Below are positions 8,235 through 49,530 of a DNA stretch of 64,000 nt, in pieces. Positions within the stretch are counted from its first letter, which is position 1. Each line of letters opens with the position of its first letter. A model generated the notes under the pieces. It had not been told where the DNA came from, ran no database searches, and was given only the letters and a program-made list of their open reading frames with translations. Source of the stretch: an uncultured Trichococcus sp. (GTDB taxonomy: Bacteria; Bacillota; Bacilli; Lactobacillales; Aerococcaceae); the NCBI RefSeq assembly GCF_963667775.1, contig NZ_OY764015.1:1905001-1969000 (forward strand). Direction: 5' to 3'. The translations under genes were made by a program, and so were the position numbers.

Positions 8235-8282
8235 CGGATAAAGCAAGGATAGGATTCATCACACACTTTAGTAGTTGAACTC

Positions 8283-8382
8283 TGAATCCCAGAACTCTCC
8301 GCCTAAGTTGACAACCACACGCGGACAAAAAACGTCCGCTTTGTGTTTGTCCCCTTAGTGCTCGATTTCTAAACGGGATTCA
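8283..8382. repeat. 100-bp nested inverted repeat downstream of hisIE
   Basis: An outer stem TGAATCCC/GGGATTCA (8283-8290 with 8375-8382), a middle CTAAG/CTTAG stem (8303-8307 with 8354-8358) and a long inner stem (8310-8326 with 8334-8351, loop of seven) lie in register. No protein is encoded. It could be a 3' UTR structure of the his mRNA, a small RNA or a palindromic repeat; only one copy was noticed. Confidence 0.55.
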
Positions 8383-8389
8383 TCATATC

Positions 8390-36068: not shown

Positions 36069-36971
36069 ATGCAATTGGACATATCCGAATCATCTTTGGC
36101 TGTATATGAGGCTTTGGCCAGCGATATACGCTTAAAGATCATCCAATTATTATCCAAACAGAAAATGAATGTGAAAGAGTTGGCACTTGAACTGAATATG
36201 ACCAGCGCCATCATTTCAAAACACATCAAAAAACTTGAAGCCGTAGGTATCATCAAAACGGAGCGGATCCCAGGAAAAGGTGGTATGCAAAAGGTCTCCA
36301 TCCTGAAAGTCGATCATATCGACATCCATTTTCCGAAGAAAATTTACCATTCCTTTGAAACCTTCGATACCGCAATCCCGATTGGACACTACACTGATTA
36401 TCACGTCACTCCGACCTGCGGATTGGCTGATTCCAAAGATTTCATCGGAAATGTGGATGAGCCGAAATACTTCATGGACTCCGGCAGAATGGACGCCAGC
36501 ATCCTTTGGTTCACTGCAGGCTATGTGGAATACAAAACTCCTAACTTCCTGACGCCGGAGGATACGCTGGAACAAATCGACATCAGCATGGAAATCAGTT
36601 CCGAGTTCCCATTCTCGAACGACGTATGGCCATCCGACATCACGTTCACCCTGAACGGCACAGAGCTGGGTACATGGACGAGCCCCGGGGACTTCGCGGA
36701 CACGCGCGGGAAGTTGAATCCAGCTTGGTGGCCTTCAAATTTGAACCAATACGGTTTATTGAAAACACTAAGGATAACCCACCACGGCACTTACATGGAC
36801 GGAGATCCCATTTCTGAAGTCAGCATCGCTGACCTGGATACGACGTCCGAAACATGGGACATCCGCATTGAGGTGAAGCCAGATGCCGAAAATGTCGGAG
36901 GCGTGACCTTGTTCGGCAAAAAATTCGGAAATCATGATCAGGACATCAACTTCAAAGCCTACTATTCCTGA
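36069..36971 (+). CDS. ArsR-type regulator with large C-terminal sensor-like domain
   Basis: A 300-residue protein. Residues 1-85 form an ArsR winged helix (LASDIRLKIIQLL, then KELALELNMTSAIISKHIKKLEAVGI). Residues 95-300 are a large beta-rich domain without the metal-binding cysteines of classical ArsR (usually about 100-120 residues in all). Tryptophans and acidic residues (DVWPSDITFTLNG, GTWTSPGDFAD, NPAWWPSNLNQYG) recall a carbohydrate-binding beta sandwich. It is divergent from the arabinan operon and shares its operators, so it is the likely sugar-responsive regulator of the operon. GAGGTGAGC precedes the ATG. Confidence 0.88.
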   Translation: MQLDISESSLAVYEALASDIRLKIIQLLSKQKMNVKELALELNMTSAIISKHIKKLEAVGIIKTERIPGKGGMQKVSILKVDHIDIHFPKKIYHSFETFDTAIPIGHYTDYHVTPTCGLADSKDFIGNVDEPKYFMDSGRMDASILWFTAGYVEYKTPNFLTPEDTLEQIDISMEISSEFPFSNDVWPSDITFTLNGTELGTWTSPGDFADTRGKLNPAWWPSNLNQYGLLKTLRITHHGTYMDGDPISEVSIADLDTTSETWDIRIEVKPDAENVGGVTLFGKKFGNHDQDINFKAYYS

Positions 36972-36974
36972 CAG

Positions 36975-37034
36975 AAAAGCTTCACGGATAAGCCCTTCAT
37001 CGTTTCCGAAGGGCTTATCCGTGAAGCTGGACAT
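36975..37034 (+). repeat. Minimal copy of the inverted-repeat element (two ends joined)
   Basis: A perfect 21-bp stem (36978-36998 with 37008-37028) with a 9-nt loop, starting 4-7 bp after the arsR stop codon. Its right arm and the following bases (AAGCTGGACATCA) match the right end of the long copies at 45500 and 49149. It looks like a version with the interior deleted. It can also act as a terminator for arsR, though no T run follows. Confidence 0.65.
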
Positions 37035-37126
37035 CATTTTAGGTGCATGAAACATTTTGCAAACTTGTGAAACACCTACGTTGATGCACTTTTCACTCTA
37101 AAAAATTTTATAAATTCCTGTATGTC

Positions 37127-37171
37127 AAAAAAGCTGCGATCCGCTCCTGGAGGAGTGGATCGCAGCTTTTT
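37127..37171. terminator. Terminator of transketolase gene
   Basis: A stem of about 20 bp (37127-37147 with 37152-37171) with a 4-nt loop, flanked by A6 and T5, able to act in both directions. Confidence 0.9.
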
Positions 37172-44684: not shown

Positions 44685-44784
44685 TTCCTTAATCGGCTAA
44701 ATGTAGAGCTTAACTTGTTTCAGGTCTAGCCATTACGGTATAATGAGGAATGAAATCGTGAAATTTCCGGGAGGAGCGACAGCA

Positions 44785-45498
44785 ATGAAAAAATATGAAG
44801 AAATCGCGGATGAACTGCGGCGCCGCATCGCTGATGGGGAGTATGCGGAAGGTGAAATGCTCCCGGACCAGATCGCTCTAGCTGAAGAATTCGGCGTCAG
44901 CCGGATGACCTTAAAAAAAGCCATCGATATGATCGCAATGGAAGGCCTGATTTTCCGCAAACGGGGTGTAGGCACTTTTGTCATCAAGAGCGCCCTCTGG
45001 AACAGCGGCGATTCCAAAGCGGATGAATACGCCGGTTTATCCAAACAGTTTCCGAATAAAACGGTGAAGAGCAAAATCATCCTTTTTGATATCCTGTTCC
45101 CTCCCCAAAATATCCAAACCTTATTGATGCTGGAAGACAATCAACCCGTCTATCATCTGCAGCGCCTGAGGATCATCGACGACAAACCATATATACTGGA
45201 AAATACCTACTTTGTGGCCGGATTGGTGAAGGATCTCACGGAGGACATCATCCACCGTTCCATCTATGACCATATCCGCGATACGTTAGGACTGAAAATC
45301 GGCGGAGCCTACCGGAAAATCCACGCCGACCGATCCAATGAATTGGATTGGCAGGAACTTGAATGCGATCAACACACTCCGATTCTTGAAGTCGAACAAG
45401 TCGTTTATCTTACCAACGGGACACCGTTCGAATACTCGACTTCCCGCAGCCGCTTCGATACACGTTCCTACACCATCACCGATATCATCAAACAATAG
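44785..45498 (+). CDS. gmuR: GntR family regulator, GmuR-like
   Basis: A 237-residue HutC-type GntR regulator. The N-terminal winged helix (residues 1-70: KKYEEIADELRRRI, GVSRMTLKKAIDMI, FRKRGVGTFVIKS) is very close to Bacillus GmuR/YydK as I recall it, and the length agrees. The C-terminal UTRA domain (about 85-230) binds a sugar-phosphate effector. The start at 44785 has GGAGGAG at 8 bp; an in-frame ATG 42 bp upstream has none. It probably represses the GH1-IIC operon just upstream. Confidence 0.85.
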   Translation: MKKYEEIADELRRRIADGEYAEGEMLPDQIALAEEFGVSRMTLKKAIDMIAMEGLIFRKRGVGTFVIKSALWNSGDSKADEYAGLSKQFPNKTVKSKIILFDILFPPQNIQTLLMLEDNQPVYHLQRLRIIDDKPYILENTYFVAGLVKDLTEDIIHRSIYDHIRDTLGLKIGGAYRKIHADRSNELDWQELECDQHTPILEVEQVVYLTNGTPFEYSTSRSRFDTRSYTITDIIKQ

Positions 45499-45499
45499 C

Positions 45500-45750
45500 A
45501 AAAGCAGAACGGGTTCGCTCAGCCCTGAAAGAAATTTAGAAAATCGTGCCACGCAACGTTCCCTACGGTCACCTTGTACTGGGACTCTAAGGGATGAATC
45601 CCTAAAAGTCCCATGCAACTGAGCATCGTAGAGCGCAATATGCTGAGAGACTTCCTGCGTCAGCAGGTTAGTCGAACAGTATCCTTGGCTCGCAAGAGAC
45701 AAGGGGTTCCTTTGTCCTTTCCGAAGGGCTTACCCGTGAAGCTGGCCGTC
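45500..45750 (+). repeat. Structured inverted-repeat element, long copy A
   Basis: Fills most of the 339-bp gap between gmuR and manA. Residues 45553-45743 are nearly collinear with 49327-49518 (copy B). Internal hairpins are shared, among them GGGACTCTAAGGGAT paired with its near complement, and a CCTGC-TCA-GCAGG stem. The ends carry imperfect inverted repeats (AGC-AACGGGTTCG / right end ACCCGTGAAGCT). Copy A lacks about 115-120 bp found after the left end in copy B. It begins 2 bp after the gmuR stop codon and codes for no protein I can support. Confidence 0.7.
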
Positions 45751-45837
45751 ATTATTAGATACATAATGCATTTTGTTAATCTGCGCTCTGTTTAATTCAT
45801 CAAGAAAATTTACTACTAAAACCTAGGAGGAAAAAAC

Positions 45838-47964: not shown

Positions 47965-47985
47965 CCTTTTTATTGCTTTGCAGAA

Positions 47986-47999
47986 TTCAAACGCTTACA
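47986..47999 (-). promoter_or_regulatory. Candidate cre site upstream of galM
   Basis: The minus strand reads TGTAAGCGTTTGAA, one mismatch from the cre consensus, just before the first possible galM start. Confidence 0.45.
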
Positions 48000-48089
48000 A
48001 TAGAGAGGAAACTTATGCAGACTTCCAAAGAAAAACATAGCGGATTGATTGATTCGCTCAAAATCAGCAACCATGAAAGGGGAAACAAA

Positions 48090-49139
48090 ATGAAAGTATC
48101 TGAAGCAATAATCGGGCAAGCCAACGGAAAGGATGTCGTAGCTTACACCTTGACGAATCCGAACGGCATCTCCCTTACAGCAATGACTTACGGCGCAACC
48201 ATCACGGAATTAAGGATGCCCGATAAAAACGGAAAGACGGAAAATGTGATTTTGGCGATGGATTCGCTGGATGATTATGTGACGCATCGCCCGTATTACG
48301 GAGCCACAATCGGCCGGGTCGCGGGACGGATCACCAAGGGATCCTTTGATTTGGACGGAACGACGCATCAGTTAGTCGTGAACGAAGGCGTCAATCAGCT
48401 CCACGGCGGCCCCGCTGGATTGGATACACATGTTTGGGATGCAGATACAGAGGTGTCCGCTGATGAAGCCAGCATCCATTTCACAACGACCGATGCAGAC
48501 GGCGCCAACGGCTATCCCGGAAACCTGTCGGTAACGGTCAGCTACACGCTTACTGCCGAGAACGAATGGAAAGTCACTTATCGGGCAACAACCGATCAAC
48601 CAACTTTGTTCAACCCGACCAACCATGTTTATTTCAACCTGAGCGGCGACATCAACAGACCGATCCTGCAGCATGACCTGCAACTGAACAGCGCTGTTTT
48701 TGCTGAATTGGGCGAAGGCAACCTCCCTACCGGAGCTTTGTTGCCGGCAGAAGGCACCCCTTTTGATTTCCGCAACGGGGGAAAACTTGCTGTTGCCGCT
48801 GAGCAGAGCCACCCACAGACTCAAAAAGTCGCCGGTTTCGATCATCCTTTCCTGCTGCAGCATGACACTGGAAAGCCTGATGCGATCCTGAGCGATGCAG
48901 AATCCGGTCGAAGCGTCAAAATGTACACGGATCAGGATTGTGTCGTGATTTTTATGCACAACGGCGCTATCGATAAGTACACAATTGCCGGCAGTCCGGT
49001 CATCCAGTACGCTGGCATCACCTTGGAGACGCAGGCTTTGCCTGACGCCATCAACCAAGAAGGCTTCGGCGACATCACGCTCCGACCGGATGAAGTCTAT
49101 TCGGCTGAAACGATCTACAAGTTCGAAGTGCAGGAGTGA
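48090..49139 (+). CDS. galM: Aldose 1-epimerase (galactose mutarotase)
   Basis: A 349-residue beta-sandwich enzyme that interconverts alpha and beta aldoses. The acid histidine is in NPTNHVYFNLSG, a conserved pair in VAGFDHPFLLQ and the base glutamate in GITLETQALPDAIN near the C-terminus. The chosen ATG at 48090 (GAAAGGGG at 8 bp) gives the usual length. An in-frame ATG at 48015 also has AGAGGA and would add 25 residues that look unlike the family. It is the only gene of its unit; palindromes upstream suggest membership of the galactan regulon. Confidence 0.92.
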   Translation: MKVSEAIIGQANGKDVVAYTLTNPNGISLTAMTYGATITELRMPDKNGKTENVILAMDSLDDYVTHRPYYGATIGRVAGRITKGSFDLDGTTHQLVVNEGVNQLHGGPAGLDTHVWDADTEVSADEASIHFTTTDADGANGYPGNLSVTVSYTLTAENEWKVTYRATTDQPTLFNPTNHVYFNLSGDINRPILQHDLQLNSAVFAELGEGNLPTGALLPAEGTPFDFRNGGKLAVAAEQSHPQTQKVAGFDHPFLLQHDTGKPDAILSDAESGRSVKMYTDQDCVVIFMHNGAIDKYTIAGSPVIQYAGITLETQALPDAINQEGFGDITLRPDEVYSAETIYKFEVQE

Positions 49140-49148
49140 TTGTTAAGA

Positions 49149-49525
49149 AAAGCTGAACGGGTTTGTTCAGCCCTGATTAAGGAAACACTGTGACCTAATC
49201 GGTCAAGTACTCTGATGTCACAGTGCGACATCAGAGGGCCTTACTACGAAATCAGTTGGATGGCCTGATGACAGGATCAAGCGATTGAAATCGCAAGAGT
49301 CATGACAATTTAGGAAATCTGTCCTTGCAACGTTCCCTACGGTCACCTTGTACTGGGGCTCTAAGGGATGAATCCCTAAGAGTCCCATGCAACTGAGCAT
49401 CGAAGAGCGCAATTGCTGAGAGACTTCCTGCGTCAGCAGGTTAGTCGAACAGTATGTCTTGGCTCGTAGAGACAAGAGGTTCCTTTATCACTTTTCCGAA
49501 GGGCTAACCCGTGAAGCTGGACATC
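49149..49525 (+). repeat. Structured inverted-repeat element, long copy B
   Basis: A non-coding element of about 370 bp, beginning 10 bp after the galM stop codon. Left end AGCTGAACGGGTTTG and right end ACCCGTGAAGCT (49507-49518) form imperfect terminal inverted repeats. Residues 49327-49518 match copy A (45553-45743). The extra interior of about 120 bp holds two perfect but mutually exclusive stems: 49187-49195 with 49217-49225, and 49210-49219 with 49227-49236. Hairpins at the AAGGGAT/ATCCCT and CCTGC/GCAGG positions are shared with copy A. Confidence 0.7.
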
Positions 49526-49530
49526 AGGTA

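What the first reader, a model, noticed from the sequence alone, without database searches (positions are those of the whole stretch)
49149..49525. Structured element with terminal inverted repeats placed just behind stop codons
Seen: copy B (49149-49525) and copy A (45500-45750) share about 190 nearly identical bases, several conserved hairpins and imperfect terminal inverted repeats (AGCT-ACGGGTT-GCCCT type). A minimal third copy is at 36975-37034. All three begin 2-10 bp after the stop codon of a plus-strand gene (galM, gmuR, arsR). Inference: either a MITE-like mobile element with strong site preference, or a structured 3' UTR RNA spread by duplication. No protein frame or transposase is supported.
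Basis: partly seen in the sequence, partly recalled or inferred. Interest (0 to 1): 0.72.

Follow-up and report, generated by a model that had tools for sequence, protein, structure and literature searches.

The report
Modular structured repeat nested before terminators
A family of small mobile DNA repeats that seem to carry no gene but fold into elaborate hairpins has spread in Trichococcus and some relatives, usually settling between the end of a gene and its transcription stop signal, and its inner hairpins are swapped in place over evolution.

Summary
The window (Trichococcus) holds 3 of about 45 places in this genome. All 13 Trichococcus genomes held carry the family. Structure-matched versions occur in three genomes of two other genera (up to 139 matches), and a 97% copy lies on 11 Enterococcus faecium plasmid records.

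The unit is a long imperfect hairpin (core about 114 nt, up to about 470 nt with helices added at fixed points), mostly followed by an asymmetric tail of about 90 nt. The fold covaries across genera (25 of 40 pairs changed on both sides). The cleanest filled/empty pair shows no target duplication. Tail-bearing copies have no terminal inverted repeats. Host DNA right of the tail is an A-run, often leading into an intrinsic terminator, which explains the place behind stop codons.

At 20 of 32 sites shared between species core architecture differs while tail and flanks stay orthologous, so cores are replaced in place.

Best reading: a non-autonomous structured mobile repeat family, moved in trans by an unidentified enzyme; an IS200-type Y1 transposase is the leading, unproven candidate. 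A host role as 3' UTR RNA is possible and untested. Not a classical MITE; a new variant of a known kind (BOX/PATE-like).

The parts
49144..49529 (+). copy B: 5' arm 49151-49174, added helices, apex 49395-49413, 3' arm 49500-49518; no conserved tail; ends at the host A-run
   Evidence: empty site in G005 reads TTGTTAACAAAAGAAGG
45496..45820 (+). copy A: arms 45503-45526 and 45725-45743, then tail; its first bases overlap the TAG stop of the GntR gene
   Evidence: same site filled in G011 and G002, empty in 8 genomes
36973..37124 (+). copy C (minimal): collapsed core, perfect 21-bp palindrome 36978-36998 / 37008-37028, plus tail 37029-37124
37127..37171 (.). host A-run and intrinsic terminator to the right of copy C
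   Evidence: L271; row L070
49532..49585 (.). host bidirectional terminator (27-nt perfect arms) to the right of copy B
   Evidence: follows the stop codon directly, without the element, in 5 relatives
36069..36971 (+). ArsR-type HTH gene upstream of copy C
44743..45498 (+). GntR/UTRA regulator gene upstream of copy A
47973..49139 (+). aldose 1-epimerase gene upstream of copy B

Best explanation
This is a non-autonomous mobile repeat family. Its unit is one long, bulged, multi-helix hairpin plus, in most copies, a tail. SHOWN: it inserts as a discrete unit, in the cleanest case without target duplication, with its right end against an A-run that often leads into an intrinsic terminator, so it usually lands between a stop codon and the terminator. 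SHOWN: the fold is conserved by paired changes across three genera, and core architecture differs at orthologous sites while tail and flanks stay orthologous. INFERRED: an enzyme supplied in trans moves it. The likeliest is an IS200/IS605-type Y1 transposase acting on the strand opposite to the gene, where the target reads hairpin-T-run and the element ends in hairpin-TTTTCTTA. INFERRED: it persists because a self-folding insert after the stop codon and before the terminator does little harm. INFERRED: cores change by recombination between dispersed copies. I put the mobile structured repeat at about 0.85, in-place core exchange at about 0.8 and the Y1 enzyme at about 0.35.
For: Copies: about 45 places in G000 (merged by hand); 13 of 13 Trichococcus genomes; 139, 44 and 21 matches in G023, G080 and G020; a 97% copy on 11 E. 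faecium plasmid records and a partial one on 2 other Enterococcus records. Empty sites: copy L006 against L148 reads TTTTTTT[AAGAAAAGC...TATATGT]CGAAAAAA against TTTTTTTCGAAAAAA. At the galM site 9 of 9 other genomes with a match show no element in the 520 bases printed, and in 5 of them the same terminator follows directly. Target: 60 distinct right junctions are A-rich; strong stems in 35 of 60 right flanks, 6 of 50 left flanks and 4 of 180 base-shuffled flanks. Fold: 25 of 40 pairs with changes on both sides, covariation 0.454 against 0.168 shuffled and at most 0.126 slid. In-place exchange: 20 of 32 shared sites, 41 of 65 pairs, differ in architecture; tail identity median 0.90 in discordant, 0.895 in concordant and 0.77 in unrelated pairs. 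Y1 link: four IS200 copies sit next to T-runs of terminators, and in two genera one sits right beside this element's T-rich end.
Against: For Y1: G008 has copies but no Y1 match. The single Y1 match in G080 holds a stop codon and the one in G023 lacks its start. IS200 and element hairpins share no sequence that I could see. The covarying fold has G-A-rich loops and an invariant G-U pair on the gene-sense strand (14 of 14), whereas the Y1 geometry fits the other strand. A copy lies near the Y1 gene at only 1 of 30 Trichococcus Y1 loci and 1 of 7 others. Y1 presence is confounded by phylogeny: 15 of 16 genomes with the element, 21 of 60 without. The other Y1 groups mostly do not sit at T-runs. 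For exact ends: other filled/empty pairs are ragged, copy B has no tail, and some copies carry a second left end straight after the right arm. For core exchange: unrelated tails reach 0.92 at the 95th percentile and single discordant pairs fall to 0.66.
Confidence: 0.6

Rival explanations
1. A functional 3' UTR or intercistronic RNA: the fold binds a protein or RNase and sets stability of the upstream message; copies are kept by selection and spread by duplication.
For: Covariation across genera; a sense ORF upstream in 63 of 93 copies, 50 of 63 abutting the stop codon; cores (0.97) more alike than flanks (about 0.92) at sites of equal architecture; an inner bulged helix with an invariant G-U pair in 14 of 14 sequences.
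Against: 30 of 93 copies have an antisense ORF upstream; the three window sites are unfilled in most relatives with a match: galM 9 of 9 others, gmuR 9 of 12 (one of these with another repeat), arsR 7 of 9; core length varies up to nearly fourfold at one site; no expression data; gene classes were not examined.
Confidence: 0.3
2. A classical MITE moved by a DDE transposase through terminal inverted repeats.
For: Inverted arms, small size, many copies.
Against: Arms are not at the ends in tail-bearing copies; no target duplication in the cleanest pair; no larger copy among the loci held: the only left/right pair 600-4500 bp apart joins a truncated copy to a separate collapsed copy 715 bases away; tails differ between genera while cores agree.
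Confidence: 0.07
3. An RNA-mobile (retro-) element: the folded transcript itself is the mobile form and is inserted at terminators, as I recall group IIC introns are.
For: The conserved fold is on the gene-sense strand (G-A loops, G-U pair); terminator targeting; no target duplication in the cleanest pair; core replacement with intact tail.
Against: No reverse transcriptase was looked for; the A-run lies 3' of the element, opposite to what I recall for group IIC introns; no intron match in Rfam for the window or 8 loci.
Confidence: 0.1
4. Complementary arms and core changes are only the by-product of fold-back (quasi-palindrome) DNA synthesis and gene conversion, with no selection on the fold.
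For: The minimal copy is a perfect palindrome whose 5' arm equals the complement of its 3' arm; cores change in whole modules.
Against: Bulges, the G-A-rich internal loop and the G-U pair persist across genera, and fold-back correction would erase them.
Confidence: 0.15

Closest known systems
BOX elements of Streptococcus pneumoniae (PMC3049150, passages read)
   Same: Interspersed, modular (A-B-C with optional modules), folded as RNA, probably parasitic
   Different: The paper relates the BOX TIR to ISSpn2; here no TIR at the ends of tail-bearing copies, insertion tied to an A-run before a terminator, and exchange of cores at fixed sites. Sequence relation to BOX not tested
SPRITE of S. pneumoniae (PMC3049150, passages read)
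   Same: Enriched close to 3' ends of genes
   Different: SPRITE resembles a terminator (18-bp stem plus U-rich tract); this element sits in front of a separate host terminator
PATEs, palindrome-associated transposable elements (PMC3119063, passages read)
   Same: No terminal inverted repeats, no target duplication, palindrome near an end, no transposase, core loss in place
   Different: PATE palindromes resemble those of IS605-type transposons; no such resemblance seen here, by eye and with few elements compared
Correia/NEMIS and other bacterial MITE-like repeats (PMC2229807, first of three parts read)
   Same: Small repeats with long stem-loops in transcripts; Correia elements come in sizes that differ by an internal sequence
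   Different: Most of those have TIRs, TA ends and target duplications
bcr1-bcr18 repeats of Bacillus cereus (PMC3446304, passages read)
   Same: Intergenic repeats, about half transcribed, some with conserved secondary structure
   Different: No sequence comparison made; modular helices and terminator targeting not described in the passages I read

Membership tests
MITE | terminal inverted repeats at the element ends | tested here: not met
   Right end of tail-bearing copies (..CCTATATG) is unrelated to the left end TAAGAAAAGC; arms are internal on that side. Copy B lacks the tail
MITE | target site duplication | tested here: not met
   Cleanest filled/empty pair shows none, or at most one ambiguous T
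MITE | ends shared with a resident transposon | tested here: inconclusive
   No larger copy with a gene between the two ends in the loci held; loci are a sample, not whole genomes, and no insertion-sequence database was searched
PATE / IS200-IS605-type non-autonomous element | no TIR and no target duplication | tested here: met
   duplication judged on the cleanest pair
PATE / IS200-IS605-type non-autonomous element | subterminal palindromes similar to those of a Y1 element | tested here: inconclusive
   A palindrome near the left end exists; the IS200 end hairpins differ in sequence, compared by eye only; the alternative small hairpin does not clearly covary
PATE / IS200-IS605-type non-autonomous element | a Y1 transposase available in the host | tested here: inconclusive
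   15 of 16 genomes with the element have a PF01797 match (G080's with a stop codon, G023's without its start), G008 has none; 21 of 60 genomes without the element also have one
REP/RAYT | RAYT gene flanked by copies of the repeat | tested here: not met
   1 of 30 Y1 loci in Trichococcus has a copy nearby, 1 of 7 others, each on one side only
Rfam families | match at gathering score | tested here: not met
   0 in the window; in 8 loci at E up to 5, a 6S RNA elsewhere in L003 and weak matches below the families' gathering scores
BOX | boxA/boxB/boxC sequence modules | not tested
   no BOX sequence was compared
Functional structured RNA | covariation beyond controls | tested here: met
   on 14 chosen representatives; one of the five measures (further pair types) does not exceed shuffles
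Functional structured RNA | transcription and a phenotype | not testable with these tools
   no expression data

The most novel reading that the evidence does not exclude
A bacterial mobile RNA element whose folded core is the replicating unit: genomic addresses (tail plus flanks) stay fixed over speciation while cores with different outer helices and added domains are written into them again and again, a natural domain-shuffling system for structured 3' UTR RNAs.
Probability: 0.15. Interest if true: 0.88.

Novelty: new variant of a known kind. Interest (0 to 1): 0.62.

Why it matters
It is an abundant structured repeat without a match in Rfam 15, with cross-genus covariation and a clear insertion rule (beside an A-run that often starts a terminator) that places many copies in 3' UTRs. 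The exchange of cores at orthologous sites is a measurable process, and it makes two questions testable: how small non-autonomous repeats grow modules, and whether host messages use them. Presence on enterococcal plasmids shows that it crosses families.

Tried and rejected
Known RNA: Rfam at gathering threshold (window) and permissive threshold (8 loci) gave nothing for the element. Phages: no match with copy B or with the g12 form. Viral contigs: one apex hit, L247, which had no covariance-model match, and none for two longer patterns. The Trichococcus form found no plasmid match; the g12 form is on 13 Enterococcus plasmid records. Integron attC and group I or II intron likeness were considered from memory only and not pursued. 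A replication-strand driven orientation was considered: of the 113 G023 copies that I took from the capped listing 98 fit two arcs (0 of 500 shuffles reach it), G080 29 of 33 listed (12 of 500), but G000 does not (33 of 45, 182 of 500), so gene or terminator orientation is the simpler cause. The G-U against A-C asymmetry in the arms alone is weak (17 against 8); over all pairs it is 122 against 17, but 79 of the 122 are one column. Papers: searches for Trichococcus repeats, Carnobacteriaceae noncoding RNA repeats and Enterococcus interspersed repeats found no report (open-access library only; one search listed one unrelated microbiome paper).

One search covered 100 of the loci then held. One search used 169 copies with parseable arms and enough flank; architecture classes are by pattern, and one of the 20 differing sites counts a collapsed copy (L084). 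One search used 93 copies and mechanical ORFs of 90 aa or more. The 60 right junctions include some orthologous pairs and one that runs into a second element. Shuffles kept base composition only. One search used strict filters, so its zeros are lower bounds. A3 was built from 14 chosen representatives. In one search I kept the best 88 of 126 aligned hits, dropping weaker and antisense ones. The 45 G000 places were merged by hand.

Full report
WHERE IT IS. The window is C1:1905001-1969000 of a 3.3-Mb genome. The three copies in the window sit after an ArsR-type HTH gene, a GntR/UTRA gene and an aldose 1-epimerase gene.

HOW MANY. Copy B as query gives 84 matched pieces in this genome. With the short form and a right-end pattern they collapse to about 45 places, merged by hand. 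The DNA query finds the family in 15 of 41 related genomes, including all 13 of the genus. A covariance model finds it in 16 of 76 genomes of the taxonomic family under strict filters: 13 of 13 Trichococcus, 2 of 6 of genus g12, 1 of 7 of genus g9. A closer search of those three outside genomes gives 139, 44 and 21 matches; several of the copies read out are identical. The g12 form is also on 13 Enterococcus plasmid records, 11 of them E. faecium at 97% over 93% of the query; I did not test how related those plasmids are. The one read in sequence has the same two ends.

ANATOMY. Left end TAAGAAAAGC; 5' arm; inner helix GAAATTTAGGAAATC; an apex GAGCATCGNAGAGCGCAAT; the returning strand GATTTATCTAATTTCC; 3' arm; then in most Trichococcus copies read a tail of about 90 nt ending CCTATATG. 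Larger forms add whole helices at three places: position I after the 5' arm, II before the apex, III after it. Cores run from about 114 to about 470 nt, with a few collapsed ones shorter. Two arm types with different sequence but the same pairing are used, ACGGGTT/AACCCGT and ACAAGCC/GGCTTGG. The g12 copies keep the left end and fold but have another, shorter tail. The minimal copy in the window has lost the core and is a perfect palindrome. Coding was not tested beyond the ORF lists.

FOLD. On 14 chosen representatives from Trichococcus, g12 and g9, 89.7% of cells pair, 25 of 40 pairs have changes on both sides, and the covariation score is 0.454 against 0.168 for shuffles and at most 0.126 for slid structures; one of the five measures, further pair types, does not exceed shuffles. 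The heart TAGGAAAT/ATTTATCTA, with a G-U pair and two bulges, is invariant except for one cell. A G-A-rich internal loop in the outer stem recurs, though not in every sequence, with quite different neighbouring pairs (by eye). On the opposite strand these G-A and G-U pairs would be mismatches, so I take the gene-sense strand as the folded one. That is inference; the wobble count in the arms alone is weak, 17 G-T against 8 A-C.

INSERTION. At the galM site none of the 9 other genomes with a match has the element in the 520 bases printed, and in 5 of them the same terminator follows the stop directly. At the gmuR site 3 of 12 are filled (G000, G011, G002), 8 are empty and G009 holds another repeat family. 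At the arsR site 2 of 9 are filled (G000, G005); G007 has a copy some 330 bases further on. The cleanest pair, L006 against L148, gives TTTTTTT[AAGAAAAGC...TATATGT]CGAAAAAA against TTTTTTTCGAAAAAA: no duplication, or one ambiguous T. Other pairs are less exact. In 60 distinct right junctions positions 4 to 9 are A in 42 to 57. A strong stem follows in 35 of 60 right flanks, against 6 of 50 left flanks and 4 of 180 base-shuffled flanks; 32 of 60 start within 20 nt and 25 of those have a T-run after. So the insertion point is an A-run that often begins an intrinsic terminator. In compact genomes this is next to the stop codon: 50 of 63 copies with a sense ORF upstream begin at -3 to +14, and in 15 of them the stop codon overlaps the element's first bases. 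The other 30 of 93 have an antisense ORF upstream.

IN-PLACE CORE EXCHANGE. Among 169 copies with parseable arms, 32 sites are shared by two or more species. At 20 of them (41 of 65 pairs) core architecture differs, at 3 sites even in arm type. If these were independent insertions the tails would be as unlike as those of unrelated copies. They are not: median tail identity is 0.90 (discordant), 0.895 (concordant) and 0.77 (unrelated), although unrelated values reach 0.92 at the 95th percentile and single discordant pairs fall to 0.66. Alignments show whole helices gained or lost with sharp edges. At the gmuR site three species share flanks and tail but carry a 241-nt type-1 core, a 114-nt type-1 core and a 180-nt type-2 core.

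WHAT MOVES IT. No larger copy with a gene was found among the loci held. Y1 (IS200/IS605) transposases match in 12 of 13 Trichococcus genomes and in all three outside carriers (one with a stop codon, one without its start), but also in 21 of 60 genomes without the element, and G008 has copies without Y1. Read on the opposite strand, the element looks like such a transposon: T-run target at the left, hairpin and TTTTCTTA at the right, no duplication, and tandem copies joined at that sequence (L018, L343). Four resident IS200 copies sit next to terminator T-runs (L296, L303, L305, L382), L304 does not, and most other Y1 groups do not; two, in different genera, sit directly beside this element's T-rich end (L297, L379). 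A large survey found IS200 over-represented between convergent genes (PMC9208149, passages read). Against it, the hairpins share no sequence that I could see and the folded strand is the other one. I hold Y1 mobilisation at about 0.35.

WHAT IT DOES. In the gene-sense copies it must be part of the 3' UTR if the gene is transcribed to its terminator; no expression data were available. Selection on the fold is indicated by covariation, but a purely selfish explanation (the mobilising enzyme reads the fold) accounts for this as well as a host function does.

COMPARISON. BOX elements are the nearest in spirit: modular, folded, interspersed (PMC3049150, passages read). PATEs share the lack of TIRs and duplications (PMC3119063, passages read). 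Neither account, in the passages read, describes terminator targeting with exchange of cores at fixed sites. Hence new variant of a known kind.

Noticed in passing
window 8281-8386 (-); L094 1512-1900; L269 about 1997-2530: A second modular structured repeat family in Trichococcus: 13 of 13 genomes, 41 matched pieces in this genome. It shares the helix module GTGACC..GGTCA..CATGACAA with the first family, and in G009 it occupies the same gmuR-manA site.
   Followed up: partly
L296, L303, L305, L297 (Trichococcus), L382 and L379 (genus g12): IS200-type Y1 elements sit next to T-runs of terminators; L297 and L379 sit directly beside the repeat's T-rich end.
   Followed up: partly
L186, L213, L196, L166, L144, L236: A second, partial left end follows directly after ..GCTGGAC or near it, as if core units without tail were joined head to tail.
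   Followed up: no
L265, L266 (gmuR site of G001, G007): TAAGAAAAG followed at once by the ribosome-binding site, possibly a remnant left end or chance.
   Followed up: no
G020 loci L325, L341, L344, L347: In genus g9 these four copies have further copies or partial copies beside them in tandem, with several different inner sequences, and lack the AAGAAAAGC end.
   Followed up: no
L003 334-523: 6S RNA gene near one long copy.
   Followed up: no
MUZD01 records: Records titled Sedimentibacter sp. SX930 match genome G012 of the Trichococcus genus in contig length (709087), so the title is probably a misnomer.
   Followed up: no
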